Source: Stenocarpella maydis
Taxonomy: Eukaryota; Ascomycota; Sordariomycetes; Diaporthales; Diaporthaceae
Assembly: GCA_002270565.1 (NCBI GenBank)
Contig: NQMI01000159.1
Span: forward strand, 1-64,000
Reading direction: 5' to 3'
Length of the DNA stretch: 64,000 nucleotides
The notes beneath the pieces are model-generated. The model did not search any database, was not told the DNA's origin, and saw only the letters and a program-made list of their open reading frames with translations. Positions 3,228-43,951 of the stretch are shown piece by piece (the first letter of the stretch is position 1; each line of letters starts with the position of its first letter). The position numbers and the translations under genes are program-made.

Positions 3228-3237
3228 GTACATATTC

Positions 3238-3812
3238 TGATGAATTTGTGCTATAGAATAGCATTCAGTTCAGCGTGTGTGTGTTTCGGCAGGGTCGCAG
3301 TATGGTGCTCTGAGGCGAATTGGGACGATTGACAATGGTCTGGACAACTTTGTATTGAATTAAGTTGGGCTTCTGTAAGCCCTCCTTATATACCCTCCGA
3401 CGTCGTCTCACCCCTGGGCACGCTGCGGTAGGCTCTGGTGCAAATTTGCAAATGCCGGAAAATTCGCCCTTCCAACACACCATCTTTGGTTCCAAGCAGC
3501 CAGCCAACCATAGCCCTAGCAATGCCCAAATTAAGTACATACAAACTTCAGAAATCAGGCTATCCAATGCACTAAGTCATATACTTTTTGGGTAAGAAAT
3601 AAGGGTAATGCAGAGGTCTGAATTAAGGTGCAAATGCAGGCCAAAATAATCGACTCACGGCCACCAAACTCATCTTGCGTCACGCACGCACTGGGCGTAC
3701 TTAGCGAAAATCGCCTGACTCGCAAGTCTAGGGTAACTCCTTGCTAAAAAGTCTAGGGTAACTCCTTGCACGAAGTCTAGGGTAAGTCCTTGCTGAGCGG
3801 TTCCGTTTAACA
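3238..3812 (-). repeat. Complete LTR, antisense (left-arm tip), not RIP-mutated
   Basis: In antisense it starts TGTTAAACGG (3812) and ends ATTCATCA (3238), giving TG...CA termini and 575 bp. It has a TATA-like tatataagg, a short hairpin just downstream, and about three copies of a 20-24-base unit with core gtctagggtaactcctt in its U3 part (about 3724-3795). Unlike its AT-rich surroundings it has near-normal composition, so it either arrived late or escaped RIP. Small open frames of 76-100 codons in it are accidental. Confidence 0.8.
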
Positions 3813-3910
3813 ATTACATTACTAAATAATTAAATAATTAATAAAGCCTTGATTATATATATATGTATATATATATAATATCATAATATCATAATATATT
3901 AATAAAGTTA

Positions 3911-4020
3911 TAATAAGCTATATTAGAAGGTGCTACTGTATTACATCTAAGTAAAAAATTAGCTAATATTCAAACTCTCCATTCAAATATCTCTTCTAAC
4001 CACCTTATATAGTGCGGACC
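3911..4020. repeat. Direct-repeat copy 1 of a short LTR-like pair
   Basis: It begins taataagctata and ends in the phrase caccttatatagtgcgga. A diverged second copy lies 308 bases downstream. The intervening 200 bases have no coding capacity, resembling a TRIM-like terminal-repeat element, but no primer-binding site was identified. Confidence 0.45.
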
Positions 4021-4218
4021 ATAATATTATACTTCTCCCCCTAAGGCTTCATCCTAAAGCCCTAGACATAGGTGACTAACCCTCAGATCTATACTAGGTA
4101 TTAAGTAATAAGACTAACTAGCCTAATAGTTGTAACCTATGAGTATATAGTTAATATAAGTAGGGATTAAACCTAAGACCTCTATATATTAGCATCCCTA
4201 GAGAGGTTAAATATAATA

Positions 4219-4328
4219 TAATAAGCTATACTAAAAGGTGTCACTATACTATATCTAAATATAAGATTAGCTAATATTAAACTCTTTATTTAAATAACTC
4301 TTTTAATTACCTTATATAGTATAAACTA
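4219..4328. repeat. Direct-repeat copy 2 of the short LTR-like pair
   Basis: Same start (taataagctata) and end (accttatatagt) as the copy at 3911-4020. Most differences are transitions toward A or T. Mirror copies of the pair lie at 36455-36564 and 36763-36872. Confidence 0.45.
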
Positions 4329-5800
4329 TAATAAAAGTATTAAGCTAGCTTAATATAATAATAAATACAAAGCTTATGAGTTATATAAAGACTTTTTAGG
4401 TATTTTGATTAATAATATATTAAATAAATAATAACTTATTAAAAAGTAACTAGGTATTATATATAGCTACTTTAATATTATATATATAAAATATTTATAC
4501 TAACTCTATTAAAAATATTAAACTAAGCCTAAAATAAATCTAAATTTCAGGGTAGCTTAAATTCTATATACTTTAGTTATAGTTTTTTTTTACTTAAGTT
4601 TCAAAATTTCCTTACATAAGTTATATTAGTATTATGAAATTATAAGGGTCTAAAATTAAATTCTCAAATAATTAAGGTAAGAAAATCCAAAATTTCTAAA
4701 AATAATACCCTAACTTATTTATATACTTATAATCAAACCCTGAAATTTTCAGTTATTTTAGGCCTAGTTTAAGGGTTTGAGCAGGGTGTACACGGACGTT
4801 TTTATATAGGAAAGCAGGATGGCCACTTCCTAGTCCTAGCTACTTCCTAATACCCTATGTTATATTAAATATATAAATTAATTAATTAATATAAAAGTAA
4901 TATAAAAATTAAATATATAACTTATATTTTAAAAATGCTGTTTTCTATAATCCTTAATACTTTCTAATCTTATTATATTTGTTTTAATCCTTTTAAAATA
5001 ATAAATTTACTTAAAAATAAATAATGAATTAAATATAATTAATATTAATATATATTAACGTTTATTAATAATTTAATATTAAATAAATGTTAAGGTTAGT
5101 CTAAGTAGGTAAATATAATAAAGTTATTATATATATATACTATTTATTAATAAATTATATTAACTATTAAGAATTAGCCAATTAATTTTCATTAAAAAAG
5201 ATATTTATATATTCTTTTTCAAAACCTTTAAATTAAGCTTAAAATAAAAATAAGTTTTAAAATGCCTTAAATTAAATATGGTAACTTAATACTTAAGTTT
5301 AAAATTTTTAGTTTTTTTATATAAGCTATATTAAAGAAATGAAATTATAGCTTTTTTAATAACTAAATAAAAGATTTTAAACTTTTAAATTAAATATATA
5401 GCTAATTTATACACCTATAATTAAACCCTGAGAATTTCGTTTATTTTAAGTGTAGTTTAAGAGTTTTAATAAGGTATATATAAATGTTTTTTATATAGAA
5501 AATAAGGTAGCTACTTCCTAGTCCTAGCTACTTCCTGGTACACTATATTATTGAAACTATTAATACAAGTTATGTATTAATATTAGGCCTATTACTCTTT
5601 TAGCCGTTATAGAGTAACTAGTAGTGTTATAAGTATAGCCTATATACTAGTTGGATCTATTTACTGGTTAGTGCGGACTAAGCTGGCGCTTAGTTATTAT
5701 ACTGCTGCAGTCACATACTGCAGTTGCCTACTGGCGTGTAGTTGCCCACTGCTGTTGCTATAGAAGTACTATTTTATAAAAAACAGGCCAACACCCTGGA

Positions 5801-6669
5801 TTTCCGCTCCACTGGGAGGGAGACCCGGACACCTGGAGTTGCTGGATTTGGTGTGGTGGTCAGAGGCATCTATCTATCTCATCACATTCGCACAACATGC
5901 TTCTCGTCAGGTTTTTGACCGCATCTAGATGCGGTCACTCCAGACGTGAAAGGCGGATATCACTTATCTGCCTCCACTACCTACCTAGGTAGGTAGGTAC
6001 TTCGTATGCATTGACCTTTCATGGAAGCGGCCACACTGTCATTGCCGAGACATCTGGAACCGTGCCAACTGAAAAGGTGGGTAGAATTCGCTGTACACTA
6101 ATAACGGGAAGAAGGTTCAAATAGCGGTCCTACTCTGGTGGGTGAGGACTAGAGGCCGTCCTGCTTTGGCGGCTGCTGGCCAAGGGCCGACCTGGCTGTT
6201 CTCTGGCGGGCTGGGCTGTCTGGGCTGTGCAGCTCTTCCCAGCTCCTGCCAAGCTCCTGCCAGTAACCTTGCAGCGTGCCAGGCACTACCCCACCCTCAA
6301 TCTGCTGTCACCGAGGGTCCATCAGGTCCAGACTCTTTGTGAGACGTTAGCATCGAGGCTGGAATCGTCGATCGTCTACCTATAGGTACCCTTATTACCT
6401 TCTACCCTACCTCAAGCGCAGTCTGGACCGTTCTGAACAGCCTTGCCTGAACACACCTCCTGCTGTGCCCCCGGCTTGGCTTCTTTATATGCGCGTGCTA
6501 CCCCGGACGTCGACTGAACACTACAACTGTCCCCTTCCCCCCCCTTCAACCGCTGCCAGACAAATCGTTCATCCGCACGTGCTTTCGGCCAGCACGCTTC
6601 TGTTCAATCCCCTGAGCCATCTCGGGGACGTCTTCTTGCAGCCCTACGTTTCCAAAACAGGATCTGATC
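5801..6669. other. Gene-free upstream region of the Laa2-like gene
   Basis: Normal base composition. A short palindrome of CTACCTAGGTAG type lies near 5980-6000, a motif common in intergenic DNA of filamentous ascomycetes. A C-rich stretch precedes the gene. No credible coding frame is present (the 66- and 82-codon frames show no codon structure). It probably contains the promoter of the gene starting at 6670. Confidence 0.5.
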
Positions 6670-8303
6670 ATGTCTGGCAGGCGGGACAGCCTTTCTCCTC
6701 CGGAGAGGACTGACACCAAAGATCCGGGAGCCCGGGAGCTAGGTACTTCTTCCTGCCCGCCAATGTGTCCCCTGGTTGCTCTATGCTATGTATCAAGACT
6801 CGGTCACTCACGTCGTCTCCCGGACAGATTCTGAATCCGAGGACCACTTCTCCGACGCTCAGTCCGCCCCTCACAGCCCAAGTGCTTCCCCTGTTCCAAG
6901 GCTTCGAGTGGAGAAGACCAGCAATGAGCCTTCCTATGGCGAAGTCCCCGGGACCGAGGCGTACAAGTTGCGGCAGGAGGATGCTGAGCCGGATGAGATA
7001 GCGGTGGTCGCCGAGGAGCAGAAGTCGGGCCGAGAGGAGGAAGAGCTCAGGTCACCCACACCTGGTGGCCGTCCCATCCCCATAACTGTAGTTGAGGAGA
7101 GCGACGGCAACACGGAGGAACAGTCCCACCCAGAGAAGAAGTACACGGCGGACACGCCAGCAGACCTTGTTCGCAAGCCTGATGGGTCGTCGGACGGGGA
7201 AGAGGGAACTGGTACGAAAGTGTAGTTGATCCTCCTCTCAAACAAGGCCCAAGAGTGCTGAGTATTTCTTTTGTAGACCAAGAACCAATATCACAGTCCT
7301 CGCCACAGCCCGATCGCTCCAGACGAGAGTCCTCTGTTGCCAATCAAGATGGTGCAGATGATGATGGCTTCGGAGATGACTTCGACGACTTCGAGGACGG
7401 TGATGACGACGCGGACTTCGGCGACTTTGACGATGGTTTCCAGGGGCCCGAAACGCCTGGCCCCCCTCCCGCTACATCATCAGCACCAGTTGTGCAGCAC
7501 CTATCATTTGTATGTGGTCTCCCTCTGCAACATGATCTGTTTCGACCCCCACATTCCATGCTGATGACTCTTGGCAGCCCATACCAGACTTTGACGGCAT
7601 GGATACAGACGATATCCTCAGCACAACAGAACCCTACCTCAACGCCCTATTCCCCTCAACAGCAGAAGACGAGGGCATCACAATAACATCACCGTCAAAA
7701 GACAACCCCATATTCCTCACCCCTCGCTCTGCCTCCCTCTGGTCCCAACTTGTCGCCCCGCCACCACTTCAACCCCCAGACTGGATCCGCTCACGCATCA
7801 GGCGACTCTTCCTCGTATCTCTGGGTGTTCCAGTGGACCTGGACGAGATCCTTCCCGCATCAAAACAGAAGAAACTGGTCCTGCCCTCGGTCCACTCACC
7901 CAGAACATCCAACGACTCCCGCCGATCAGGCTCCAAGGGACCCTCGCGCCTCAAGACCTCACAGCCGGGGCAGGAGGGCGGCAATGCCTCGGACTCCGGG
8001 GGAGGGACTGGTGGAGGAGGCGGAGGAGGTAGCGCGCGCGCGGGGACCAAGAGAAAGGCACCGCCGCCCGAGTTCGACCTGGTGGCCGCGAAGCAGCTGT
8101 GCGCGACGACGGACGAGGCCCTGGACGGCATGACGGATGCCGAGCTCAAGGAGCACGTAAAGAGGCTCGAGGGCCTGGACGGCACCGCCAAGGCGGTCCT
8201 GGACTACTGGCAGCAGAGGACGGACGAGCAGATCGGGGAGAGGGAGGCTTTCGAGGGCGTCATCGAGAACCTAGTGAAGCACGCTCGCAAGACGAGGAAG
8301 TGA
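6670..8303 (+). CDS. Laa2/aftiphilin-like AP-1 clathrin-adaptor accessory protein (left-arm copy)
   Basis: Four exons are inferred: 6670-6742, 6798-7211, 7277-7509 and 7578-8303, giving about 481 residues in consistent phase. The N-terminal half is acidic and disordered. The middle has a run of aspartates with DFDDFEDG and DFGDFDDGF, the acidic phenylalanine type of motif that binds AP-1 ear domains. After PIPDFDGMDTDDIL comes a segment with SLWSQLVAPPPLQPPDW and RRLFLVSLGVPVDLDEIL. It resembles the clathrin-binding region of aftiphilin, in which a W/L-rich stretch precedes a conserved LxSLG. A glycine-rich linker and a helical C-terminus follow. In yeast, Laa2 helps Laa1 place AP-1 on trans-Golgi/endosome membranes; that role is assigned here by inference. 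The start ATG gives a smooth join to exon 2; the neighbour is the convergent eIF2 gamma gene. Confidence 0.62.
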
Positions 8304-9093
8304 AAATAGACAGATAGAGAAAAAGAGAGAGAGAGAGGGAGAGAGACCAACGCGTTTCAAGGAAAGGGAACTACTAAAATAACTGGCAGGCATAGATTTT
8401 GGGAGCAGGTCCGGGCACTCGGAGGAAATGGCGCCGGCCTGCTGTAATTTTTTGGGAGCCTTGCCGGGCTCGATGGCCAGGTACTCTGGACAGCAGATTT
8501 TACTGACAGAACAACATACATCCAGAAGACTGCTGATGAGGTTAAAAGATTATGATATGTACGCTTTTAAAGTAAATACAGAGATCCACACAGGGAAAAT
8601 AGAGAGCACACTGGTACATCATTCGTGCCGTGATAATTAAGGGAGTATCACCCATCCTAACTCCCCTTTGCGGGGATCGAGCGATGAGATGTGCTTTTAG
8701 TATCCGTACTATGAGATTGGATGTCGTCGGACTGGGTATTGTCGGGGTGTGTGTGGAAGTGGGCGATGTACAGGTGCATCCCCTGTTCACGTGGGTGTAA
8801 ATCTCCAGTTTCTTTCAAATCACGGATGAGTGATAAGATTGGGAACTTTTGTGTATTCCGAAGCATGCGCCTGCGTGTAGGAATCGGGGCGCCACACATG
8901 CAACCCTGCCATGTCACTAAACCCAACGGCAAAGTCGCCCTCCCTTCCGTGGAAGGCACACCGCTGGCAGTCCTTTCTAAAAGTATTTTTTCTACTTTCG
9001 TGAACTGCTACAGCACCCGCCTTGCTCTACCTTTCCTTGGCCCGTATGGCTACGGCCGGACGTCTCTTTTCCCACCTCCTTCTCCGTCGCGAT
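8304..9093. other. Convergent intergenic region (left arm)
   Basis: It lies between the 3' ends of the Laa2-like gene and eIF2 gamma and should hold both 3' UTRs. A GA-rich run (8318-8346) follows the Laa2-like stop codon. Open frames of 70-137 codons overlap on both strands without codon bias; no gene is called. Confidence 0.5.
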
Positions 9094-10710
9094 TTAGTTT
9101 GTGCTGGGCTGCAGGGTGCTGCCGGCGGCGATAGTGGCCCAACCGATCAGGCGCCAGTGCTTCTCGATACGTCGAGACAGGGCAACCTTCTCTCCAATGC
9201 TCGTGCAAGCCGGGGATGTCAGGATCAGCTTGGCGGCGTCCTTCTTGATAGCGGCCACCTTGGCACCTGTTGACGTGGAACCGATGTTGACCATGATGAC
9301 CTCGTTCTTGGCCAGCTTCTCGACCTTGGCCTGCTTGCCGTCCGCAGTGCGGACACCAAGGAGTCGACGGAGCAGGTAGAAGTTGACCTCAATCTCGGAG
9401 TAGATATCCGGCAGGCGTCCCTTTAGGCCCAGGACGTGACCAACAAGGCGGTCGGCACGGCAGAGCGTAGGGTCAATGCGTGTTCCGACACCAATCAGAC
9501 CGCCAGGAACGGCGTACTTGAGTTCGTTGGACTCGGAGTTGAGTGAGACGATGCGGCTGAAGATGGGTGTGCACTTCAGGTCTCCCTTCTCGTCACGGGT
9601 GACGATACCGGGCCGAATCTCGATCTCGTCGCCGAGCTTAAGAACACCGTGCAGAATGGAGCCACCAGCAACACCACCCTTGAGCTCCTCGATCTCCGCA
9701 CCAGGCTTGTTGACGTCGAAGGATCGGATGACGATCATCTGAGGATCCTGGGTGAAGTCTCTTGGGGGGACAGGGATCGTATTGACGATGGCATCGAGGA
9801 CGGCGTCGACGTTGAACTTCAGCTGGGCGGAGATGGGGATGACGGGCGACTTGCCGGCAACTGTGCCTCGGATGAACTTGAGAATGGACTCGTAGTGCTG
9901 TTTTGCGGCCTCTTCCCTCATCAGGTCGACCTTGTTCTGAAGAATGATGATCTTGTCGAGCTTCATGATCTCGATAGCGGCCAAATGCTCCGAGGTCTGG
10001 GGCTGGGGGCAGGACTCGTTGCCAGCGATAAGCAGCAGCGCGGCGTCCATGACAGCGGCTCCCGACAACATGGTGCTCATGAGAATATCGTGACCTGGAC
10101 AGTCGACGAACCTGGGGACAGCAGGTCAGATTAGCCCTTGGGTTGCCCCCTTGAGGCGCGGGTGATATGATGTGGCGACTTACGAAACGTGTCTCAACAA
10201 CCTGTACCTGCCTTCACATCCATCCCGCTCGCAAGGAGGGTCGACCTCCTTGTCGCTCTTGTAACTCCTGAAGCAGCCAGGCCTTGGGCACGCGGGGTTG
10301 TCGCATTTGTAGATCTTGGCGTTGGCGTAGCCAAGTTTGATGGTAATGTTGCGGATCAGCTCGTTCTTGAATCGCACAGTCTGGACGCCCGATATGGCCT
10401 TTACGACGGTGGATTTTCCGTGAGCGACGTGGCCGATGGTTCCGATGTTGATTGTTGCTTGTCTCGCAATGATCTCTGGTGTGAGAGGGGAGAGTGTGGA
10501 GAGGTCGAGGTCCTTGGGCTCGGTCTGAGGGGGCAGGACTGGCTTCTCGACGACGGGCGCCGGGGCGGTCTTCTTCAGCGCAGGCTTGAGAGGCTTCTCC
10601 TCCTCGATCTCGTGGTCTGAGAGTCCCTGGCCAGCCTCGGAGCCCGAGGACTCGTCACCAGAGTCGGCGACGTCGTTCCCGAATTTGTCAATCTCGCCGT
10701 TGGCCGACAT
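9094..10710 (-). CDS. GCD11: Translation initiation factor eIF2 subunit gamma (left-arm copy)
   Basis: Two exons on the minus strand, 10184-10710 and 9094-10111, encode 514 residues; yeast Gcd11 is of similar length. This GTPase forms the eIF2 complex that brings initiator Met-tRNA to the 40S ribosome. An acidic N-terminal extension (residues 1-70) is followed by the G1 loop GHVAHGKST (93-101). A cysteine-rich knuckle (C136, C141, C146, C160, C165) comes next, then G3 DCPGH (179-183) and G4 NKVD. The phase-2 intron (10112-10183, 72 nt, GTAAGT donor) falls just before the G3 motif. The upstream in-frame TTG codon is ignored in favour of the ATG of [10 protein letters not shown]. The gene is essential and normally single copy, yet an identical second copy lies at 30073-31689. 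Confidence 0.97.
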
Positions 10711-12555
10711 GATGGCGGGGTAATCGATCAAGGACGCCCGTCTTTTGTGTTTGCGTCGGTGGCCAAGGCTGTCGGGTGGTTACTGAGGGGCAAGTCGTGA
10801 TAGTATTAGTGAAGGTGGGATGTGGGTTGAGCCGGCCCGTACTGGTCGTCGCGAAGCTGTCGAAGTCGAAGGTTGTCGAATCGGTGTCGAATGGTGGGTG
10901 GGCGGGATCTGACCAATTTGACTCACCAGTGCACAATGACTGCTTGGCCCAAAAAAAATCCAGTGCTGTCCTCCCCCTGTCATCCACCAGAGCCAAGACC
11001 AGCGGGCTGGAGAGCTGGTCTAACCCAACCGGGCTGCCACGAGACTGGAGGGTGGCCCGTGCATGGGCACAGGAAGATATCCTACATAGTGTAGACCCTC
11101 CTCCGCAGGAAGTCCTCCGGTGGTGCACAATACACGGTGCTCGCTTGGGATGCAAACTCGTGCAGTCTACCTAAAGAACTAGCCAACAGTTAACAGTGGG
11201 GGAGCCGGTAGAGGAATAGCTAGGTAATTGACGGTCCAATAAATGAGGCCATGGGAGATCTTACTGGGCTCCTTCGATCAGAAAGCTTGCTAGCCTATAA
11301 AAGACAATATGTCCCGTGATGTGACACTCTGGTTTGTGGACATCACGCGTGTTCCTATGAATAAGGTGGCGTCCGACTTCTGGGTGTTGGCATTCTGGGA
11401 AAGGTGCGGCAGAAACCGAGTGTGCGGCAACGGTTCCAGAGTCAGCCTGAAGACAACCAAAACGCAACAATTTTTCTACCATTCAGTAAGGAAAGAGTCA
11501 AGTAACAAGAAACCAAGCAAATATTACTTGATGTGCTTGCATGGCGTGAAAGTACACAAATTGGCGCCAGAGAATAAGCTCGTAGCTTCAAACTGGCACT
11601 TTGCAACGCAGCCTTGTGTGCCATTTCAAATAAGCCAATCAGAGACCTCAGCAGAAAGTAACTAAGACAAGGCTGGCTGCCAAGATAGACAACAGGAGTT
11701 TTCAACAGACCTTGAAATGTGTTATTCTAAAATTTAATATTTAGCTTAATGATATACTTATAAATAAACTCTGAAATTTATATTTTAATTAGGCTTAGTT
11801 TAAGGATTTTTATAAAGTATATATAAATATTTTTATATAAGAAACTAATTTATTTATTAATATATTTTAATTTTTAAAAACTATATTATAAATATATATA
11901 TAATTTATTTTATATATATAAGAACTATTAATAATTTATTTGAATCTAAGTATTTAATATTTATAGAATTTTATTTAAATTTAACACGGAGGCTTGAAGT
12001 AAAGGTGTCCGGGTAAGGCGGGGGGGGCGAAAGTGGGCCGCCCACATTAAGCCCGGATAGCTTAATTCGATAATTTGCAATCTGCATTGACAAATAGTCA
12101 CGAAGGTTTCTTACCCGAAACGGGGTCTTTAAAGGTTCTTCCTTATAAGGGGTTCTTTACTCATATAATTAGCTCTTGAGTTTCCTACCGGGTGGTAATT
12201 CTTCTGTTGAATGGAAAATTTATGTTGCATCCGGCAGAGTTCAGAGTCACTTGGGCTAAATAGCTCTTCGCGCGTACACTCTGAGTATGATCTTCAAAAT
12301 AATTGAGCCTTTCTTTGACCCATACTTACAGAAGCCAACGTAAACTCAAATCAAGCAGGTAGGAGATGATCACCTCAGCTTGGGCGGGCGAACTAAAAGT
12401 AATACACACATCCTGTCAACCAAACAATTACATGACATTATGTAACTAACTATCCCGTCCGATTCATTATCCTGACCCGAAGCAATCTGTTGTTCATCAC
12501 ATACGAAATATCAAAAATCCTCGGCGGCCACGTCCGGCGAGCAAACGAGTTAACA
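10711..12555. other. Intergenic region between eIF2 gamma and the SDR reductase (left arm)
   Basis: 10711 to about 11200 is CT/GA-rich and probably the eIF2 gamma promoter. 11200-11700 has frames up to 118 codons without recognisable features. About 11715-11990 is an AT-rich RIP-decayed patch related to the block at 4735-5550. Directly after it (12018-12055) comes a G-run followed by gtgggccgcccacatta, a phrase nearly shared with 40370-40410. The rest shows nothing recognisable. Confidence 0.5.
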
Positions 12556-13593
12556 TCATGTAGTCGCTTTCTCAGCTTCCAGTAGCTCAATGAAGGAGTC
12601 CTTCATGCTCGTCCTGAACGGCGTATACTCCATACCAAGAACCTTCTGCGCCTTGCTGGTATCAATGGCGTACACCCCACCTTCCTCCAGCTCCCTCCAT
12701 CCCGCACCAGGGTCACCCGCGGGGATGCGGCCCCTCAGCTCGGGAATGTCCTCCCTCACCGCGTCCGCAACGCTCTGGTAGTCAAAGTGGTGCGCGAGGA
12801 TAAACCTCTCCCCGCCAGCCTCGGGCACCGCGAACGCCGCCACGTGCGCCACCGCGTTGTCGCGCGCGTCCACGAAGCCCATGAAGTCCATTGGCGGCAG
12901 CTCGTCGTAGTCGACCATGCACCACAGCGCCGCGCTCGACTGGTTCAGCCCAGAGAGCCCGTGGCTGAGCGGCACGACGTGCGGGCCAAAGACCCAGGCT
13001 GGGCAGAGCGCGACGAGGTCGAAGGCGGGATTGTGCGCGGCCATCCAGTCCCACTGACTGCGCTCGGCGAGCGCTTTTGATGCGCAATACGCCACCGCCG
13101 GCTCGGCTGTCGTGGCCTCATCGTATGTCATTGGGTTCCAATCCTGCTCTGTGTACGTGTGACCTGGGCGCTTCCCCGCGAGCAGGTCCAGGTTGGAGGC
13201 GAACGAGGCAGTGGTGACGACGCGGCGGACGGAGGTACCGTACCGGGCAGTGGCCTCGAGGATGGTGACGGCGCCGTTGATTGCCGGGTCAAGGATATCG
13301 CGGCGCGGGTCCTCGTAGTCGAACACAAAGGGCGACGCCGTGTGTATCACCCCCGTGACGCCCGGCCCGAAGGAATCCTTGAAGCTCTCTACCTTGGTGA
13401 TGTCGGGGACGATGGTGGTCGAGAGCTGCGAGGAGTATGTCGGGAACGTATCCTTGAGCTGTGCTGCTGACCTGTCGGTACGGACGGCGCCTTTTACCTT
13501 GTAGCCGTTCTCCAGGGCCACTTTGATGATGTGGCCGGCTACGAACCCATTGGCGCCTGTAACGAGCAATGTCTGTTCAGATTGTGAAGGCAT
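12556..13593 (-). CDS. NADPH-dependent ketone/aldehyde reductase, extended SDR of the Gre2 / dihydroflavonol-reductase type (left-arm copy)
   Basis: A single exon encodes 345 residues, close to yeast Gre2 (342). The Rossmann dinucleotide motif TGANGFVAGH is at residues 12-21. The catalytic YxxxK is Y169-C-A-S-K173, with a serine-rich VVTTASFAS just before it, as in extended SDRs. These enzymes reduce carbonyl compounds such as methylglyoxal or 3-methylbutanal, or serve in secondary metabolism; the substrate here cannot be told. The ATG giving MPSQSEQTLLVTGANGF is preferred over an upstream non-ATG extension. It is transcribed in the same direction as the ATRR-like gene 2.4 kb away, separated by a pseudogene and a MITE, so a functional link is only possible. 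Confidence 0.88.
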   Translation of the reverse strand: MPSQSEQTLLVTGANGFVAGHIIKVALENGYKVKGAVRTDRSAAQLKDTFPTYSSQLSTTIVPDITKVESFKDSFGPGVTGVIHTASPFVFDYEDPRRDILDPAINGAVTILEATARYGTSVRRVVTTASFASNLDLLAGKRPGHTYTEQDWNPMTYDEATTAEPAVAYCASKALAERSQWDWMAAHNPAFDLVALCPAWVFGPHVVPLSHGLSGLNQSSAALWCMVDYDELPPMDFMGFVDARDNAVAHVAAFAVPEAGGERFILAHHFDYQSVADAVREDIPELRGRIPAGDPGAGWRELEEGGVYAIDTSKAQKVLGMEYTPFRTSMKDSFIELLEAEKATT

Positions 13594-14672
13594 TGTGTGG
13601 GAAGATTGCTTCCGCGGATTGGAGAGAAGTGAGACGAGATCAGTTGGCCAGTCAGTGGTGGATATTGGTATTAAGTTTCCCTGAGCGACTCCATGTCTTC
13701 GCAATCTCGACGCTATTTATGTATAACACCAGCCAACACGATTGGCCCTCCTAGCGTCGGACAACGTCGGCACGCCTCCGATGGCTCCATGTCCTGTTGA
13801 CCTGTCAACGGGTGCTTACTCACAGGATCATAAGCACTGTAGGATGGCATGTGCTGCCAAGACAAGTTGGGTACCAGTCTCCTATCCAAACTGTGTATCG
13901 AGCACGACACCTACTAGGCCTTGACGCCTCGTGTCACCCAGCGTTCCATTAATGACAGTGGTAGTCCATCATCGCAGCGATACTATCGGCCTGCAAGCTA
14001 GTGCTTACCGGTCTGCATGAAATCGTGATTCGAAAAGTGGCTTGTACCAAGGACATTCTCAATGGGTTTCAGATGTCCATCCCCCGATGGCATCGTAAAC
14101 ATGGCATGTAGAACACTATTAAAGGAGCTCAGTTGTAGACTTAATTATTGTTGTGGGTATGAACCTCTGCAAGAAGGTTCCATGCTCCCAGTGTTGGTCT
14201 TTTAATTCATCCCCGGTCTGTAGAAACATCGTGTTAAAGTTAGGTACTCCATACGGCGTACACAGGCCATAGTCCTTCAAATCAGAGACCGCCTGGGCAG
14301 CATTTGTAGGAGTGTGGCTTGGTATGTCGGACACGCTGAGTGGACAGAGACTGCATCGACATAGATTATAACAGGAGCTTGTAATACGTAATATCAGGTT
14401 TCATCGGCTCGTTACATTGCAGGTCTAGTAGACTGGTCTTTTGGCCAGTTCAGGATCAACACCAAAAGCTGATTCCAAATGTACAGCAAGGGTCTGCAGG
14501 CCACTTACAGCAGAGATCGAAAGACACGTTCAAAATCGCTTTTCAAGGGGAACCATTCTCGGCCAAACCTCACGCCTAGATAAACAAAGTAACTTTCACA
14601 ATCGCTAACCGCCTCGACAGATTCCAAGCAGCATAGTTTCCAGTCAACATCTGCTTGCTCAGCTTTTTAGGA
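13594..14672. other. Intergenic region upstream of the SDR reductase (left arm)
   Basis: It contains the reductase promoter (to about 13750) and otherwise unclassified sequence. A 71-codon frame at 14119-14334 (minus) begins at a non-ATG codon and is not recognised; it may be a gene relic. Confidence 0.4.
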
Positions 14673-28227: not shown

Positions 28228-30072
28228 TGTTAACTCGTTTGCTCGCCGGACGTGGCCGCCGAGGATTTTTGATATTTCGTATGTGATGAACAACAGATTG
28301 CTTCGGGTCAGGATAATGAATCGGACGGGATAGTTAGTTACATAATGTCATGTAATTGTTTGGTTGACAGGATGTGTGTATTACTTTTAGTTCGCCCGCC
28401 CAAGCTGAGGTGATCATCTCCTACCTGCTTGATTTGAGTTTACGTTGGCTTCTGTAAGTATGGGTCAAAGAAAGGCTCAATTATTTTGAAGATCATACTC
28501 AGAGTGTACGCGCGAAGAGCTATTTAGCCCAAGTGACTCTGAACTCTGCCGGATGCAACATAAATTTTCCATTCAACAGAAGAATTACCACCCGGTAGGA
28601 AACTCAAGAGCTAATTATATGAGTAAAGAACCCCTTATAAGGAAGAACCTTTAAAGACCCCGTTTCGGGTAAGAAACCTTCGTGACTATTTGTCAATGCA
28701 GATTGCAAATTATCGAATTAAGCTATCCGGGCTTAATGTGGGCGGCCCACTTTCGCCCCCCCCGCCTTACCCGGACACCTTTACTTCAAGCCTCCGTGTT
28801 AAATTTAAATAAAATTCTATAAATATTAAATACTTAGATTCAAATAAATTATTAATAGTTCTTATATATATAAAATAAATTATATATATATTTATAATAT
28901 AGTTTTTAAAAATTAAAATATATTAATAAATAAATTAGTTTCTTATATAAAAATATTTATATATACTTTATAAAAATCCTTAAACTAAGCCTAATTAAAA
29001 TATAAATTTCAGAGTTTATTTATAAGTATATCATTAAGCTAAATATTAAATTTTAGAATAACACATTTCAAGGTCTGTTGAAAACTCCTGTTGTCTATCT
29101 TGGCAGCCAGCCTTGTCTTAGTTACTTTCTGCTGAGGTCTCTGATTGGCTTATTTGAAATGGCACACAAGGCTGCGTTGCAAAGTGCCAGTTTGAAGCTA
29201 CGAGCTTATTCTCTGGCGCCAATTTGTGTACTTTCACGCCATGCAAGCACATCAAGTAATATTTGCTTGGTTTCTTGTTACTTGACTCTTTCCTTACTGA
29301 ATGGTAGAAAAATTGTTGCGTTTTGGTTGTCTTCAGGCTGACTCTGGAACCGTTGCCGCACACTCGGTTTCTGCCGCACCTTTCCCAGAATGCCAACACC
29401 CAGAAGTCGGACGCCACCTTATTCATAGGAACACGCGTGATGTCCACAAACCAGAGTGTCACATCACGGGACATATTGTCTTTTATAGGCTAGCAAGCTT
29501 TCTGATCGAAGGAGCCCAGTAAGATCTCCCATGGCCTCATTTATTGGACCGTCAATTACCTAGCTATTCCTCTACCGGCTCCCCCACTGTTAACTGTTGG
29601 CTAGTTCTTTAGGTAGACTGCACGAGTTTGCATCCCAAGCGAGCACCGTGTATTGTGCACCACCGGAGGACTTCCTGCGGAGGAGGGTCTACACTATGTA
29701 GGATATCTTCCTGTGCCCATGCACGGGCCACCCTCCAGTCTCGTGGCAGCCCGGTTGGGTTAGACCAGCTCTCCAGCCCGCTGGTCTTGGCTCTGGTGGA
29801 TGACAGGGGGAGGACAGCACTGGATTTTTTTTGGGCCAAGCAGTCATTGTGCACTGGTGAGTCAAATTGGTCAGATCCCGCCCACCCACCATTCGACACC
29901 GATTCGACAACCTTCGACTTCGACAGCTTCGCGACGACCAGTACGGGCCGGCTCAACCCACATCCCACCTTCACTAATACTATCACGACTTGCCCCTCAG
30001 TAACCACCCGACAGCCTTGGCCACCGACGCAAACACAAAAGACGGGCGTCCTTGATCGATTACCCCGCCATC
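28228..30072. other. Intergenic region between the SDR reductase and eIF2 gamma (right arm)
   Basis: Mirror of 10711-12555. The AT-rich RIP-decayed patch is at about 28793-29068, the cccac/gtggg phrase at about 28728-28765, and the eIF2 gamma promoter side at about 29580-30072. Confidence 0.5.
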
Positions 30073-31689
30073 ATGTCGGCCAACGGCGAGATTGACAAAT
30101 TCGGGAACGACGTCGCCGACTCTGGTGACGAGTCCTCGGGCTCCGAGGCTGGCCAGGGACTCTCAGACCACGAGATCGAGGAGGAGAAGCCTCTCAAGCC
30201 TGCGCTGAAGAAGACCGCCCCGGCGCCCGTCGTCGAGAAGCCAGTCCTGCCCCCTCAGACCGAGCCCAAGGACCTCGACCTCTCCACACTCTCCCCTCTC
30301 ACACCAGAGATCATTGCGAGACAAGCAACAATCAACATCGGAACCATCGGCCACGTCGCTCACGGAAAATCCACCGTCGTAAAGGCCATATCGGGCGTCC
30401 AGACTGTGCGATTCAAGAACGAGCTGATCCGCAACATTACCATCAAACTTGGCTACGCCAACGCCAAGATCTACAAATGCGACAACCCCGCGTGCCCAAG
30501 GCCTGGCTGCTTCAGGAGTTACAAGAGCGACAAGGAGGTCGACCCTCCTTGCGAGCGGGATGGATGTGAAGGCAGGTACAGGTTGTTGAGACACGTTTCG
30601 TAAGTCGCCACATCATATCACCCGCGCCTCAAGGGGGCAACCCAAGGGCTAATCTGACCTGCTGTCCCCAGGTTCGTCGACTGTCCAGGTCACGATATTC
30701 TCATGAGCACCATGTTGTCGGGAGCCGCTGTCATGGACGCCGCGCTGCTGCTTATCGCTGGCAACGAGTCCTGCCCCCAGCCCCAGACCTCGGAGCATTT
30801 GGCCGCTATCGAGATCATGAAGCTCGACAAGATCATCATTCTTCAGAACAAGGTCGACCTGATGAGGGAAGAGGCCGCAAAACAGCACTACGAGTCCATT
30901 CTCAAGTTCATCCGAGGCACAGTTGCCGGCAAGTCGCCCGTCATCCCCATCTCCGCCCAGCTGAAGTTCAACGTCGACGCCGTCCTCGATGCCATCGTCA
31001 ATACGATCCCTGTCCCCCCAAGAGACTTCACCCAGGATCCTCAGATGATCGTCATCCGATCCTTCGACGTCAACAAGCCTGGTGCGGAGATCGAGGAGCT
31101 CAAGGGTGGTGTTGCTGGTGGCTCCATTCTGCACGGTGTTCTTAAGCTCGGCGACGAGATCGAGATTCGGCCCGGTATCGTCACCCGTGACGAGAAGGGA
31201 GACCTGAAGTGCACACCCATCTTCAGCCGCATCGTCTCACTCAACTCCGAGTCCAACGAACTCAAGTACGCCGTTCCTGGCGGTCTGATTGGTGTCGGAA
31301 CACGCATTGACCCTACGCTCTGCCGTGCCGACCGCCTTGTTGGTCACGTCCTGGGCCTAAAGGGACGCCTGCCGGATATCTACTCCGAGATTGAGGTCAA
31401 CTTCTACCTGCTCCGTCGACTCCTTGGTGTCCGCACTGCGGACGGCAAGCAGGCCAAGGTCGAGAAGCTGGCCAAGAACGAGGTCATCATGGTCAACATC
31501 GGTTCCACGTCAACAGGTGCCAAGGTGGCCGCTATCAAGAAGGACGCCGCCAAGCTGATCCTGACATCCCCGGCTTGCACGAGCATTGGAGAGAAGGTTG
31601 CCCTGTCTCGACGTATCGAGAAGCACTGGCGCCTGATCGGTTGGGCCACTATCGCCGCCGGCAGCACCCTGCAGCCCAGCACAAACTAA
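30073..31689 (+). CDS. GCD11: Translation initiation factor eIF2 subunit gamma (right-arm copy)
   Basis: Exons are 30073-30599 and 30672-31689, and the intron 30600-30671 is unchanged from the left copy. The 514-residue product is identical to that of 9094-10710. This arm is continuous with unique chromosomal sequence, so if only one copy is real this is the better-supported one. Confidence 0.97.
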
Positions 31690-32479
31690 ATCGCGACGGA
31701 GAAGGAGGTGGGAAAAGAGACGTCCGGCCGTAGCCATACGGGCCAAGGAAAGGTAGAGCAAGGCGGGTGCTGTAGCAGTTCACGAAAGTAGAAAAAATAC
31801 TTTTAGAAAGGACTGCCAGCGGTGTGCCTTCCACGGAAGGGAGGGCGACTTTGCCGTTGGGTTTAGTGACATGGCAGGGTTGCATGTGTGGCGCCCCGAT
31901 TCCTACACGCAGGCGCATGCTTCGGAATACACAAAAGTTCCCAATCTTATCACTCATCCGTGATTTGAAAGAAACTGGAGATTTACACCCACGTGAACAG
32001 GGGATGCACCTGTACATCGCCCACTTCCACACACACCCCGACAATACCCAGTCCGACGACATCCAATCTCATAGTACGGATACTAAAAGCACATCTCATC
32101 GCTCGATCCCCGCAAAGGGGAGTTAGGATGGGTGATACTCCCTTAATTATCACGGCACGAATGATGTACCAGTGTGCTCTCTATTTTCCCTGTGTGGATC
32201 TCTGTATTTACTTTAAAAGCGTACATATCATAATCTTTTAACCTCATCAGCAGTCTTCTGGATGTATGTTGTTCTGTCAGTAAAATCTGCTGTCCAGAGT
32301 ACCTGGCCATCGAGCCCGGCAAGGCTCCCAAAAAATTACAGCAGGCCGGCGCCATTTCCTCCGAGTGCCCGGACCTGCTCCCAAAATCTATGCCTGCCAG
32401 TTATTTTAGTAGTTCCCTTTCCTTGAAACGCGTTGGTCTCTCTCCCTCTCTCTCTCTCTTTTTCTCTATCTGTCTATTT
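31690..32479. other. Convergent intergenic region (right arm)
   Basis: Mirror of 8304-9093; holds the 3' UTRs of eIF2 gamma and the Laa2-like gene. No gene is seen. Confidence 0.5.
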
Positions 32480-34113
32480 TCACTTCCTCGTCTTGCGAGC
32501 GTGCTTCACTAGGTTCTCGATGACGCCCTCGAAAGCCTCCCTCTCCCCGATCTGCTCGTCCGTCCTCTGCTGCCAGTAGTCCAGGACCGCCTTGGCGGTG
32601 CCGTCCAGGCCCTCGAGCCTCTTTACGTGCTCCTTGAGCTCGGCATCCGTCATGCCGTCCAGGGCCTCGTCCGTCGTCGCGCACAGCTGCTTCGCGGCCA
32701 CCAGGTCGAACTCGGGCGGCGGTGCCTTTCTCTTGGTCCCCGCGCGCGCGCTACCTCCTCCGCCTCCTCCACCAGTCCCTCCCCCGGAGTCCGAGGCATT
32801 GCCGCCCTCCTGCCCCGGCTGTGAGGTCTTGAGGCGCGAGGGTCCCTTGGAGCCTGATCGGCGGGAGTCGTTGGATGTTCTGGGTGAGTGGACCGAGGGC
32901 AGGACCAGTTTCTTCTGTTTTGATGCGGGAAGGATCTCGTCCAGGTCCACTGGAACACCCAGAGATACGAGGAAGAGTCGCCTGATGCGTGAGCGGATCC
33001 AGTCTGGGGGTTGAAGTGGTGGCGGGGCGACAAGTTGGGACCAGAGGGAGGCAGAGCGAGGGGTGAGGAATATGGGGTTGTCTTTTGACGGTGATGTTAT
33101 TGTGATGCCCTCGTCTTCTGCTGTTGAGGGGAATAGGGCGTTGAGGTAGGGTTCTGTTGTGCTGAGGATATCGTCTGTATCCATGCCGTCAAAGTCTGGT
33201 ATGGGCTGCCAAGAGTCATCAGCATGGAATGTGGGGGTCGAAACAGATCATGTTGCAGAGGGAGACCACATACAAATGATAGGTGCTGCACAACTGGTGC
33301 TGATGATGTAGCGGGAGGGGGGCCAGGCGTTTCGGGCCCCTGGAAACCATCGTCAAAGTCGCCGAAGTCCGCGTCGTCATCACCGTCCTCGAAGTCGTCG
33401 AAGTCATCTCCGAAGCCATCATCATCTGCACCATCTTGATTGGCAACAGAGGACTCTCGTCTGGAGCGATCGGGCTGTGGCGAGGACTGTGATATTGGTT
33501 CTTGGTCTACAAAAGAAATACTCAGCACTCTTGGGCCTTGTTTGAGAGGAGGATCAACTACACTTTCGTACCAGTTCCCTCTTCCCCGTCCGACGACCCA
33601 TCAGGCTTGCGAACAAGGTCTGCTGGCGTGTCCGCCGTGTACTTCTTCTCTGGGTGGGACTGTTCCTCCGTGTTGCCGTCGCTCTCCTCAACTACAGTTA
33701 TGGGGATGGGACGGCCACCAGGTGTGGGTGACCTGAGCTCTTCCTCCTCTCGGCCCGACTTCTGCTCCTCGGCGACCACCGCTATCTCATCCGGCTCAGC
33801 ATCCTCCTGCCGCAACTTGTACGCCTCGGTCCCGGGGACTTCGCCATAGGAAGGCTCATTGCTGGTCTTCTCCACTCGAAGCCTTGGAACAGGGGAAGCA
33901 CTTGGGCTGTGAGGGGCGGACTGAGCGTCGGAGAAGTGGTCCTCGGATTCAGAATCTGTCCGGGAGACGACGTGAGTGACCGAGTCTTGATACATAGCAT
34001 AGAGCAACCAGGGGACACATTGGCGGGCAGGAAGAAGTACCTAGCTCCCGGGCTCCCGGATCTTTGGTGTCAGTCCTCTCCGGAGGAGAAAGGCTGTCCC
34101 GCCTGCCAGACAT
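32480..34113 (-). CDS. Laa2/aftiphilin-like AP-1 clathrin-adaptor accessory protein (right-arm copy)
   Basis: Minus-strand exons are 34041-34113, 33572-33985, 33274-33506 and 32480-33205, exact mirrors of the left copy with the same product. All introns use GT-AG. Intron 1 (55 nt) and intron 2 (65 nt) both break a glycine/aspartate codon after its first base. Confidence 0.62.
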
Positions 34114-34982
34114 GATCAGATCCTGTTTTGGAAACGTAGGGCTGCAAGAAGACGTCCCCGAGATGGCTCAGGGGATTGAACAGAAGCGTGCTGGCCGAAA
34201 GCACGTGCGGATGAACGATTTGTCTGGCAGCGGTTGAAGGGGGGGGAAGGGGACAGTTGTAGTGTTCAGTCGACGTCCGGGGTAGCACGCGCATATAAAG
34301 AAGCCAAGCCGGGGGCACAGCAGGAGGTGTGTTCAGGCAAGGCTGTTCAGAACGGTCCAGACTGCGCTTGAGGTAGGGTAGAAGGTAATAAGGGTACCTA
34401 TAGGTAGACGATCGACGATTCCAGCCTCGATGCTAACGTCTCACAAAGAGTCTGGACCTGATGGACCCTCGGTGACAGCAGATTGAGGGTGGGGTAGTGC
34501 CTGGCACGCTGCAAGGTTACTGGCAGGAGCTTGGCAGGAGCTGGGAAGAGCTGCACAGCCCAGACAGCCCAGCCCGCCAGAGAACAGCCAGGTCGGCCCT
34601 TGGCCAGCAGCCGCCAAAGCAGGACGGCCTCTAGTCCTCACCCACCAGAGTAGGACCGCTATTTGAACCTTCTTCCCGTTATTAGTGTACAGCGAATTCT
34701 ACCCACCTTTTCAGTTGGCACGGTTCCAGATGTCTCGGCAATGACAGTGTGGCCGCTTCCATGAAAGGTCAATGCATACGAAGTACCTACCTACCTAGGT
34801 AGGTAGTGGAGGCAGATAAGTGATATCCGCCTTTCACGTCTGGAGTGACCGCATCTAGATGCGGTCAAAAACCTGACGAGAAGCATGTTGTGCGAATGTG
34901 ATGAGATAGATAGATGCCTCTGACCACCACACCAAATCCAGCAACTCCAGGTGTCCGGGTCTCCCTCCCAGTGGAGCGGAAA
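34114..34982. other. Gene-free upstream region of the Laa2-like gene (right arm)
   Basis: Mirror of 5801-6669, including the CTACCTAGGTAG-type palindrome near 34783-34803. No gene is seen. Confidence 0.5.
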
Positions 34983-36970
34983 TCCAGGGTGTTGGCCTGT
35001 TTTTTATAAAATAGTACTTCTATAGCAACAGCAGTGGGCAACTACACGCCAGTAGGCAACTGCAGTATGTGACTGCAGCAGTATAATAACTAAGCGCCAG
35101 CTTAGTCCGCACTAACCAGTAAATAGATCCAACTAGTATATAGGCTATACTTATAACACTACTAGTTACTCTATAACGGCTAAAAGAGTAATAGGCCTAA
35201 TATTAATACATAACTTGTATTAATAGTTTCAATAATATAGTGTACCAGGAAGTAGCTAGGACTAGGAAGTAGCTACCTTATTTTCTATATAAAAAACATT
35301 TATATATACCTTATTAAAACTCTTAAACTACACTTAAAATAAACGAAATTCTCAGGGTTTAATTATAGGTGTATAAATTAGCTATATATTTAATTTAAAA
35401 GTTTAAAATCTTTTATTTAGTTATTAAAAAAGCTATAATTTCATTTCTTTAATATAGCTTATATAAAAAAACTAAAAATTTTAAACTTAAGTATTAAGTT
35501 ACCATATTTAATTTAAGGCATTTTAAAACTTATTTTTATTTTAAGCTTAATTTAAAGGTTTTGAAAAAGAATATATAAATATCTTTTTTAATGAAAATTA
35601 ATTGGCTAATTCTTAATAGTTAATATAATTTATTAATAAATAGTATATATATATAATAACTTTATTATATTTACCTACTTAGACTAACCTTAACATTTAT
35701 TTAATATTAAATTATTAATAAACGTTAATATATATTAATATTAATTATATTTAATTCATTATTTATTTTTAAGTAAATTTATTATTTTAAAAGGATTAAA
35801 ACAAATATAATAAGATTAAAAAGTATTAAGGATTATAGAAAACAGCATTTTTAAAATATAAGTTATATATTTAATTTTTATATTACTTTTATATTAATTA
35901 ATTAATTTATATATTTAATATAACATAGGGTATTAGGAAGTAGCTAGGACTAGGAAGTGGCCATCCTGCTTTCCTATATAAAAACGTCCGTGTACACCCT
36001 GCTCAAACCCTTAAACTAGGCCTAAAATAACTGAAAATTTCAGGGTTTGATTATAAGTATATAAATAAGTTAGGGTATTATTTTTAGAAATTTTGGATTT
36101 TCTTACCTTAATTATTTGAGAATTTAATTTTAGACCCTTATAATTTCATAATACTAATATAACTTATGTAAGGAAATTTTGAAACTTAAGTAAAAAAAAA
36201 CTATAACTAAAGTATATAGAATTTAAGCTACCCTGAAATTTAGATTTATTTTAGGCTTAGTTTAATATTTTTAATAGAGTTAGTATAAATATTTTATATA
36301 TATAATATTAAAGTAGCTATATATAATACCTAGTTACTTTTTAATAAGTTATTATTTATTTAATATATTATTAATCAAAATACCTAAAAAGTCTTTATAT
36401 AACTCATAAGCTTTGTATTTATTATTATATTAAGCTAGCTTAATACTTTTATTATAGTTTATACTATATAAGGTAATTAAAAGAGTTATTTAAATAAAGA
36501 GTTTAATATTAGCTAATCTTATATTTAGATATAGTATAGTGACACCTTTTAGTATAGCTTATTATATTATATTTAACCTCTCTAGGGATGCTAATATATA
36601 GAGGTCTTAGGTTTAATCCCTACTTATATTAACTATATACTCATAGGTTACAACTATTAGGCTAGTTAGTCTTATTACTTAATACCTAGTATAGATCTGA
36701 GGGTTAGTCACCTATGTCTAGGGCTTTAGGATGAAGCCTTAGGGGGAGAAGTATAATATTATGGTCCGCACTATATAAGGTGGTTAGAAGAGATATTTGA
36801 ATGGAGAGTTTGAATATTAGCTAATTTTTTACTTAGATGTAATACAGTAGCACCTTCTAATATAGCTTATTATAACTTTATTAATATATTATGATATTAT
36901 GATATTATATATATATACATATATATATAATCAAGGCTTTATTAATTATTTAATTATTTAGTAATGTAAT
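34983..36970. repeat. AT-rich RIP-decayed repeat block (right arm)
   Basis: Mirror of 3813-5800. The 110-bp direct repeats fall at 36455-36564 and 36763-36872. There is not a single additional transition relative to the left-arm block over 2 kb, despite its RIP-type decay. Confidence 0.7.
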
Positions 36971-37541
36971 TGTTAAACGGAACCGCTCAGCAAGGACTTA
37001 CCCTAGACTTCGTGCAAGGAGTTACCCTAGACTTTTTAGCAAGGAGTTACCCTAGACTTGCGAGTCAGGCGATTTTCGCTAAGTACGCCCAGTGCGTGCG
37101 TGACGCAAGATGAGTTTGGTGGCCGTGAGTCGATTATTTTGGCCTGCATTTGCACCTTAATTCAGACCTCTGCATTACCCTTATTTCTTACCCAAAAAGT
37201 ATATGACTTAGTGCATTGGATAGCCTGATTTCTGAAGTTTGTATGTACTTAATTTGGGCATTGCTAGGGCTATGGTTGGCTGGCTGCTTGGAACCAAAGA
37301 TGGTGTGTTGGAAGGGCGAATTTTCCGGCATTTGCAAATTTGCACCAGAGCCGACCGCAGCGTGCCCAGGGGTGAGACGACGTCGGAGGGTATATAAGGA
37401 GGGCTTACAGAAGCCCAACTTAATTCAATACAAAGTTGTCCAGACCATTGTCAATCGTCCCAATTCGCCTCAGAGCACCACACTGCGACCCTGCCGAAAC
37501 ACACGCTGAACTGAATGCTATTCTATAGCACAAATTCATCA
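36971..37541 (+). repeat. Complete LTR, sense (right-arm tip)
   Basis: It begins TGTTAAACGG and ends ATTCATCA, 571 bp, with tatataagg near 37391 and the hairpin just downstream. It differs from the left-arm LTR by two substitutions (37353, 37481) and a 4-base shorter GT/CA run. No target-site duplication is apparent, as expected if later rearrangement followed insertion. Confidence 0.8.
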
Positions 37542-37544
37542 GAA

Positions 37545-37848
37545 TATGTACTTAATTTGGGTATTGCTAGGGCTATGGTTGGCTAGTTGCTTGGAACCAA
37601 AGATGGTGTGTTGGAAGGGCGAATTTTCCGGCATTTGCAAATTTGCACCAGAGCCTACCGCAGCGTGCCCAGGGGTGAGACGACGTCGGAGGGTATATAA
37701 GGAGGGCTTACAGAAGCCCAACTTAATTCAATACAAAGTTGTCCAGACCATTGTCAATCGTCCGAATTCGCCTCAGAGCACCATACTGCGACCCTGCCGA
37801 AACACACACACGCTGAACTGAATGCTATTCTATAGCACAAATTCATCA
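37545..37848 (+). repeat. Partial second LTR in tandem, sense
   Basis: About 304 bp matching the last part of the LTR (from tatgtacttaatttggg to ATTCATCA), directly following the complete copy. At all three positions where the palindrome arms differ, this copy agrees with the left-arm LTR. Confidence 0.75.

Positions 37849-43920: not shown

Positions 43921-43951
<31 letters not shown>

What the first reader, a model, noticed from the sequence alone, without database searches (positions are those of the whole stretch)
3228..37555. A 34.3-kb perfect palindrome with no spacer, carrying five gene loci per arm
Each base x equals the complement of base 40783-x. All open frames in one arm recur identically at exactly mirrored coordinates, so arms of about 17 kb have no net indel, and the centre has no loop at all. 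Natural inverted duplications usually keep a small asymmetric spacer, and palindromes of this size are hard to replicate. It is either a very recent fold-back duplication (isochromosome-like, or a dimerised broken end) or a fold-back artefact of library or assembly.
Basis: partly seen in the sequence, partly recalled or inferred. Interest (0 to 1): 0.9.

Follow-up and report, generated by a model that had tools for sequence, protein, structure and literature searches.

The report
Fold-back palindrome, probably an assembly artefact
A fungal scaffold contains a 34-kb stretch that mirrors itself almost base for base, but one of its two outer ends stops at a scaffold gap inside repeated DNA, so it is more likely an assembly or library fold-back than a real chromosome structure.

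Summary
The palindrome is in the sequence: centre 20391|20392, no spacer, perfect for 15,427 bases per arm, reaching 3228 and 37551 with three substitutions and one 4-base indel. It lies in a 97.6-kb scaffold of a 53.5-Mb fungal assembly, by MPP10 probably a Diaporthe. The arms hold ATRR, BUD31, an epimerase, eIF2-gamma and LAA2; LAA2 and the eIF2-gamma C-terminal domain were found nowhere else.

No outer breakpoint is sequenced. A single N at 3227 abuts the left arm, which copies the right arm up to that N, including a 24-mer found exactly nowhere else. The arm ends in an LTR whose last ~345 bases have 40 other near-identical listed copies and at which this assembly repeatedly, not always, breaks. 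Before the N lie 278 bases of identical multicopy repeat, then a diverged repeat copy that could still anchor the link. Elsewhere a telomere array sits inside a scaffold beside a gap. If reads were short, as suspected, the arms' identity is no independent evidence. I favour an artefact (0.68); a genuine recent fusion is not excluded. Read depth or one spanning long read would decide.

The parts
20391..20392 (.). Centre of the palindrome, zero spacer
   Evidence: Symmetric outwards for 15,427 bases; the 92 and 575 bases next to it were found only in the two arms
20392..37551 (+). Right arm, contiguous without N with the right flank up to 43970
3228..20391 (-). Left arm, mirror of the right arm; starts at the base after a single N
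3227..3227 (.). Single N: scaffold join at the outer end of the left arm (inferred from its likeness to the other single Ns)
   Evidence: other single Ns in this scaffold at 43971 and C66:83145
1..3226 (.). Left piece of the scaffold: AT-rich repeat (GC 0.28) with LTR fragments at 1-159 and 2393-2948
   Evidence: 2949-3226 has 5 other full-score copies; 160-2392 has 50 other listed matches at 75-86%
36973..37544 (+). LTR at the outer end of the right arm
   Evidence: Its last ~345 bases match 40 other listed places at 98-100%
3235..3810 (-). LTR at the outer end of the left arm, 99.0% to the right one, alternating between the two right-hand copies at variable sites
37545..37851 (+). Partial second tandem LTR copy; the palindrome runs 7 bases into it and the left arm then ends at the N
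41641..42474 (-). 277-aa ORF in the right flank, single copy: unique anchor of the right side before the next N
   Evidence: ORF; only its own place found
20967..24821 (+). ATRR-type NRPS-like carboxylate reductase, 1284 aa (right arm)
   Evidence: ORF; AMP-binding, PP-binding, NAD_binding_4, adh_short; homologues
15962..19816 (-). ATRR-type gene (left arm copy)
   Evidence: ORF, mirror of 20967-24821
25545..25757 (+). BUD31 exon (right arm); mirror 15026-15238 -
   Evidence: PF01125
27190..28227 (+). NAD-dependent epimerase/3-beta-HSD-like gene, 345-aa ORF (right arm); mirror 12556-13593 -
   Evidence: PF01370/PF01073, ORFs
30673..31653 (+). eIF2-gamma domains (right arm); mirror 9130-10110 -
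   Evidence: PF00009, PF03144, PF09173; PF09173 found only at these two places
32483..33226 (-). LAA2/YBL010C exon (right arm); mirror 7557-8300 +
   Evidence: PF17104; found only at these two places

Best explanation
It is most likely an assembly or library fold-back. Single-copy sequence (from 20392 outward to the LTR at 36973-37544, then the right flank) lost its true neighbour at 20391|20392. There it was joined to its own reverse complement, by a fold-back chimeric read, by a contig end overlapping its own reverse complement, or by a graph path read out in both directions. The mirrored copy then runs back out until it meets the high-copy LTR, where the contig stops; a scaffolder put a repeat-derived piece in front with one N. 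Shown: symmetry up to the N, repeat-derived left piece, several contig breaks at this LTR. Inferred: the join at the centre is false, the N is a scaffold join, and short reads were used.
For: (1) The left arm's outer end is a single N at 3227. The arm still copies the right arm at its last base, including the 24-mer 3228-3251/37528-37551, found exactly nowhere else in the assembly (two one-mismatch places). No outer breakpoint is seen in contiguous sequence. (2) The 278 bases before the N are multicopy, 5 other places with the same full score. (3) The outer end is an LTR with 40 other listed places at 98-100%. Single Ns lie within 8 bases of an LTR copy at C66:3227, C66:83145, C246:3461 and C134:6452, 4 of the 7 single Ns seen (C246 and C134 were fetched because the LTR was near their starts, as were C13 and C131, which showed no N). 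Scaffolds C66, C60 and C134 begin inside the LTR. (4) A T/A homopolymer at 43971, with an 84-base near-duplicate on both sides, also breaks contigs; this and the LTR breaks suggest short reads, which would collapse both arms. (5) The arms differ only in the outermost 10% (4 of 4 differences, post hoc); the left LTR alternates between the two right-hand copies, as when repeat reads fill two ends separately. (6) A telomere array lies inside scaffold C100, beside a 6-N gap, so false joins probably exist here. (7) Zero spacer: all 21 sequenced human inverted-duplication junctions in PMC3907307 had one (766-70,466 bp; passages).
Against: The LTR is also passed without an N in stretches fetched from C13, C131, C70, C5 and C30, so it does not always break contigs, and the breaking repeat may be a longer element, which weakens the short-read inference. 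No other scaffold was found to carry the sequence next to the centre, so the true neighbour that an artefact requires was not found. No second comparable fold-back was found in 277 kb of non-N sequence, about 0.5% of the genome. One arm difference (4964) lies outside the LTR. No adapter was recognised by eye at the centre. A genuine duplication could also end in an LTR, since broken dicentrics are stabilised through repeats (PMC10622511, passages). Read depth and spanning reads were not available.
Confidence: 0.68

Rival explanations
1. A genuine, recent inverted duplication from fusion of two broken sister chromatids (U-type fusion, breakage-fusion-bridge): both ends joined at the same base, giving zero spacer; the dicentric broke again about 17 kb out, and the end was rescued through the LTR into the locus now seen at 1-3226.
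For: Zero spacer is what U-type fusion predicts; PMC3907307 states absence of a spacer as its key feature (passage). Open ORFs in both arms and near-identity fit a young event. The gene part of the arms shows no RIP-like skew while the AT islands do. An outer end in a dispersed LTR fits rescue through repeats (PMC10622511, passages; LTR). The left piece contains a distinguishable repeat copy.
Against: No outer breakpoint in contiguous sequence. The distal segment that must have been lost was not identified. A 17-kb-arm zero-spacer palindrome is expected to be unstable (recalled). Many LTR copies are 98-100% alike and the local one is not RIP-skewed, so lack of RIP is no sign of special recency.
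Confidence: 0.19
2. A genuine fold-back inversion: a resected broken end annealed to itself at a short native inverted repeat, was filled in and replicated. The loop is invisible because it was itself a short palindrome (for example around CCATGG at the centre).
For: Yeast fold-backs use natural 3-15 bp inverted repeats (PMC10622511, passages) with small loops, medians 5-5.5 nt in sae2 or mre11 mutants and 35.5 nt with both genes intact (PMC7467729, passages). The central sequence is CCAGCCA|TGGCTGG.
Against: Needs a self-complementary loop; otherwise a few unpaired bases should remain at the centre, and none do. No native inverted repeat can be shown because the distal side is missing. Shares the objections about the unsequenced outer breakpoint.
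Confidence: 0.09
3. An old palindrome kept uniform by arm-to-arm gene conversion.
For: Differences lie at the outer ends, as conversion can leave them.
Against: Known cases keep a spacer (recalled). Two of three substitutions and the indel lie in the LTR and follow another LTR copy rather than new mutations. Collapse by a short-read assembler explains identity more simply.
Confidence: 0.04

Closest known systems
Palindromic library or assembly artefacts (phi29/MDA inverted chimeras, missed hairpin adapters, palindromic scaffolds of draft assemblies)
   Same: A sequence joined to its own reverse complement. Palindromic blocks reported in the first Adineta vaga genome: a later assembly found a single palindrome, with its authors' caveat of a low N50 (PMC7749112, passage), and PMC5916493 names assembly method as one possible explanation (passages). 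Missed adapters: about 1% of PacBio reads in PMC3504050 (passage).
   Different: MDA chimeras have distances between the parts from 0 to over 5,000 nt with a peak at 250-300 nt (PMC4595205, passages); here it is zero. The sequencing method of this assembly is unknown.
U-type sister-chromatid fusion / breakage-fusion-bridge inverted duplication
   Same: Predicts zero spacer (PMC3907307, passage) and identical arms.
   Different: No terminal deletion, rescued end or outer breakpoint could be shown here.
Fold-back inversions of Saccharomyces cerevisiae and human inverted duplications
   Same: Mirrored arms; broken dicentrics may be rescued at repeats (PMC10622511, passages).
   Different: Those have a loop or spacer (PMC3907307, PMC7467729, passages); this has none.
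Y-chromosome-type and bdelloid or springtail gene palindromes
   Same: Inverted blocks of several genes on one scaffold (PMC5490193, passages).
   Different: One springtail palindrome has a reported synonymous divergence of 0.2; here 15.4 kb is identical with no spacer.

Membership tests
Assembly/library fold-back artefact | Symmetry ends at a contig or scaffold break rather than at a sequenced breakpoint | tested here: met
   N at 3227 abuts the left arm; symmetry unbroken to that base
Assembly/library fold-back artefact | Only one unique flank | tested here: inconclusive
   Right: an ORF at 41641-42474, before the next N, is single copy. Left: 2949-3226 is identical multicopy repeat but 160-2392 is a diverged, distinguishable repeat copy
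Assembly/library fold-back artefact | Single-copy read depth over the arms | not testable with these tools
   No reads held
Assembly/library fold-back artefact | True continuation of the locus found on another scaffold | tested here: inconclusive
   Sequence next to the centre found only in the arms; the true neighbour is unknown, and a scaffold beginning beyond the join would not be seen
Assembly/library fold-back artefact | Other fold-backs in the same assembly | tested here: inconclusive
   With arms of 16 bases or more and spacers up to 8, only this palindrome and homopolymer palindromes near 43.9-44.0 kb in 277,021 non-N bases, about 0.5% of the genome
Sister-chromatid (U-type) fusion / BFB | No spacer between the inverted copies | tested here: met
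Sister-chromatid (U-type) fusion / BFB | Distal segment lost, mirrored arm joined to a telomere or another locus | tested here: inconclusive
   Left arm joined only across an N to repeat-derived sequence; no telomere array of four or more units listed for C66 (list cut but in contig order past C66)
DSB fold-back inversion | Spacer or loop between the arms | tested here: not met
   Zero spacer; human junctions 21 of 21 with spacer (PMC3907307, passages)
DSB fold-back inversion | Short native inverted repeat at the centre | not testable with these tools
   Needs the unrearranged locus from a relative; no fungal relative could be fetched here
Gene-converting palindrome | Present in other isolates or species | not testable with these tools
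   No other Diaporthe genome could be fetched here

The most novel reading that the evidence does not exclude
A Diaporthe strain truly carries a fresh 17-kb-arm, spacer-free inverted duplication, made by fusion of sister chromatids or by fold-back of a broken end within a housekeeping region and rescued through an LTR, thereby doubling eIF2-gamma, BUD31, LAA2, an epimerase and ATRR, and is viable with it.
Probability: 0.25. Interest if true: 0.6.

Novelty: not a real feature. Interest (0 to 1): 0.17.

Why it matters
Mainly as a warning: this assembly would be annotated with two copies of five genes, including eIF2-gamma, that are probably single copy, and a duplication scan would report a spectacular recent palindrome. 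If it proved real, it would be a spacer-free natural palindrome of a size thought hard to keep, caught soon after it formed, and a direct test of whether sister-chromatid fusions occur and survive in filamentous fungi.

Tried and rejected
Isochromosome: rejected as a leading idea, since nothing ties the arms to a centromere or a chromosome end; one search lists no telomere array of four or more units in C66, and one search found one two-unit match, at 39849. Dating by arm identity: rejected, because a short-read assembly would enforce identity. RIP as a clock: computed but not decisive, since the local LTR is unskewed and many LTR copies are near-identical. A programmed biological palindrome: no supporting element was seen; the arms hold ordinary conserved genes.

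Ancestral gene order: I tried to learn what normally lies beyond ATRR. Protein searches with ATRR, the MPP10 ORF and LAA2 pointed to the genus but give no context. The listed contig lengths put ATRR and MPP10 on different contigs in two Cytospora species, which says little about Diaporthe. Identifying the assembly from the literature failed (0 papers; no match by size seen among the 15 of 1,112 listed). Paper searches on self-complementary contigs and palindrome artefacts gave the artefact papers cited; one search found none. Sampling for other palindromes covered about 0.5% of the genome. For that count I dropped 11 loci, L001, L002 and L004-L012 (search-hit flanks, the palindrome centre itself and a copy of the window start); two kept loci of C66 overlap by about 6.4 kb; each sequence's list was cut at six rows. 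Seven of eight short N runs seen are one base long, the eighth six; long N runs were set aside as possibly withheld.
Full report
What is there. Position x pairs with 40783-x without exception for 15,427 bases on each side of 20391|20392. Outside this the match continues with substitutions at 4964, 3430 and 3302 and a 4-base insertion in the left arm at 3275-3278, to 3228 on the left and 37551 on the right; BLASTN reports 34,328 bases at 99.96%. In 20 shuffles of the window the longest spacer-free arm was 7-11 bases; in the window right of the palindrome it was 16, in homopolymer sequence.

Where it is. The window is the first 64 kb of scaffold C66 (97,587 bases) of a 53.5-Mb assembly in 312 pieces. 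An ORF in the window (50589-53210) is MPP10, whose best named relatives are Diaporthe species at 83-85%, so the fungus is probably a Diaporthe (inferred). The arm carries an ATRR-type reductase, BUD31, an epimerase, eIF2-gamma and LAA2 (the minus strand of 20392-28890 was not scanned). LAA2 and the eIF2-gamma C-terminal domain were found at exactly two places each in the assembly, both in the arms. The 575 bases between the centre and the ATRR start codon were also found only there.

The left end is not a sequenced breakpoint. Position 3227 is a single N and the left arm begins at 3228. All of C66 was read: its only other Ns are single, at 43971 and 83145. At 43971 an 84-base near-duplicate in T/A homopolymer sequence of different run lengths lies on both sides, as when two contig ends overlap but were not merged. 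Up to the N at 3227 the left arm still copies the right arm: the right-hand LTR is followed by a partial second LTR copy, and the 24-mer across that junction occurs exactly only at 37528-37551 and, mirrored, at 3228-3251; two other places match with one mismatch. So the symmetry has no observed outer end. This does not exclude an exchange inside the second LTR copy.

What flanks it. On the right the sequence runs without N to 43970 and includes an ORF at 41641-42474 found at one place only; next to the palindrome lies repeat whose 39 other listed matches are 84-88% alike. On the left, beyond the N, the nearest 278 bases match 5 other places with the same full score, among 42 matches listed; then come an LTR fragment (90.5% to the arm's LTR) and 160-2392, a repeat copy whose 50 other listed matches are 75-86% alike. 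That last stretch is distinguishable from its relatives, so read pairs could have anchored the link. I therefore do not claim that a second flank is absent, only that none is joined in contiguous sequence.

Why it stops there. The outer end is an LTR whose last ~345 bases match 40 other listed places at 98-100% (a lower bound). This assembly repeatedly breaks at it: single Ns lie within 8 bases of an LTR copy at C66:3227, C66:83145, C246:3461 and C134:6452, 4 of the 7 single Ns seen; a fifth is 45 bases away; scaffolds C66, C60 and C134 start inside the LTR. C246 and C134 were fetched because the LTR was near their starts; C13 and C131, fetched for the same reason, show no N, and copies in stretches of C70, C5 and C30 are also passed without one. 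The breaks, with the homopolymer break at 43971, suggest short reads (inference; a longer element could also be the obstacle). If so, the data could not resolve a 34-kb palindrome and would give identical arms from one collapsed sequence whether or not a second copy exists. Arm identity is then no evidence of recency, and the palindrome rests on the join at 20391|20392.

The few differences. All four lie in the outer 10% of the arm (about 0.0001 if uniform; post hoc). The left LTR agrees with the second right-hand LTR copy at the three places inside the LTR where it differs from its mirror, and with the mirror at the interleaved ones, which looks like repeat reads filling the two ends separately. 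The difference at 4964 lies outside the LTR and is unexplained.

Other signs of joining errors. Scaffold C100 (530 kb) has a telomere array at 438287-438454, 12 (telomere-like) bases after a 6-base N run: either an interstitial array or, more likely, a chromosome end scaffolded internally.

Biology versus artefact. In PMC3907307 (passages) all 21 sequenced human inverted-duplication junctions have a spacer of 766-70,466 bp, and zero spacer is named as the mark of U-type sister-chromatid fusion. In yeast, fold-backs use hairpin loops (PMC7467729, passages) at 3-15-bp inverted repeats, and broken dicentrics are rescued through repeats (PMC10622511, passages). A real event ending in an LTR is thus possible. 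Against it stand the unsequenced outer breakpoint, the expected instability of a spacer-free 17-kb-arm palindrome (recalled), and precedents: of the palindromes of the first Adineta vaga genome a later assembly recovered a single one, with the caveat of a low N50 (PMC7749112, passage; see also PMC5916493, passages), and fold-back reads are known artefacts of some libraries (PMC3504050, PMC4595205, PMC13265396, passages). In Botryllus, by contrast, palindromes were judged real after depth and other checks (PMC12448946, passages), which is the test needed here.

Points against my reading. I did not find the true neighbour that an artefact implies. No second fold-back was found, although only about 0.5% of the genome was examined. 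The left piece may be a true flank. I do not know the sequencing method. RIP-like skew is strong in the AT islands (TpA/ApT 1.37) and absent from the arms' gene part (0.70), which fits either no duplication or one later than the last RIP-competent cross.

Verdict. The palindrome is real as a string and probably not real as a chromosome: artefact 0.68 (0.75), genuine sister fusion 0.19, genuine fold-back 0.09, old converting palindrome 0.04.

Noticed in passing
window 43887-44055: 84-base near-duplicate (97.6%) on both sides of a single N at 43971, in T/A homopolymers of different length: probably two overlapping contig ends left unmerged.
   Followed up: partly
G000:C100:438269-438454 (L037): A telomere array (CCCTAA repeats) lies inside a 530-kb scaffold, 12 telomere-like bases after a 6-N gap: probable scaffolding error or an interstitial telomere; the 50 bases shown after it equal those after the array near the start of C56.
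   Followed up: partly
window 36973-37851 and copies listed: A young LTR family with 40 other listed copies at 98-100% over about 345 bases, some in partial tandem (C63, C134, C299), in a genome whose AT-rich islands carry RIP-like skew: the family may have spread after RIP weakened.
   Followed up: no
window 4408-5583, 25750-26142, 28733-29060: Short AT-rich elements with inverted-repeat character (MITE-like) and many matches of about 70-85% across the genome.
   Followed up: no
window 39849: A two-unit telomere-like match (CCCTAACCCTAA) in the AT-rich right flank, 2.3 kb beyond the palindrome.
   Followed up: no
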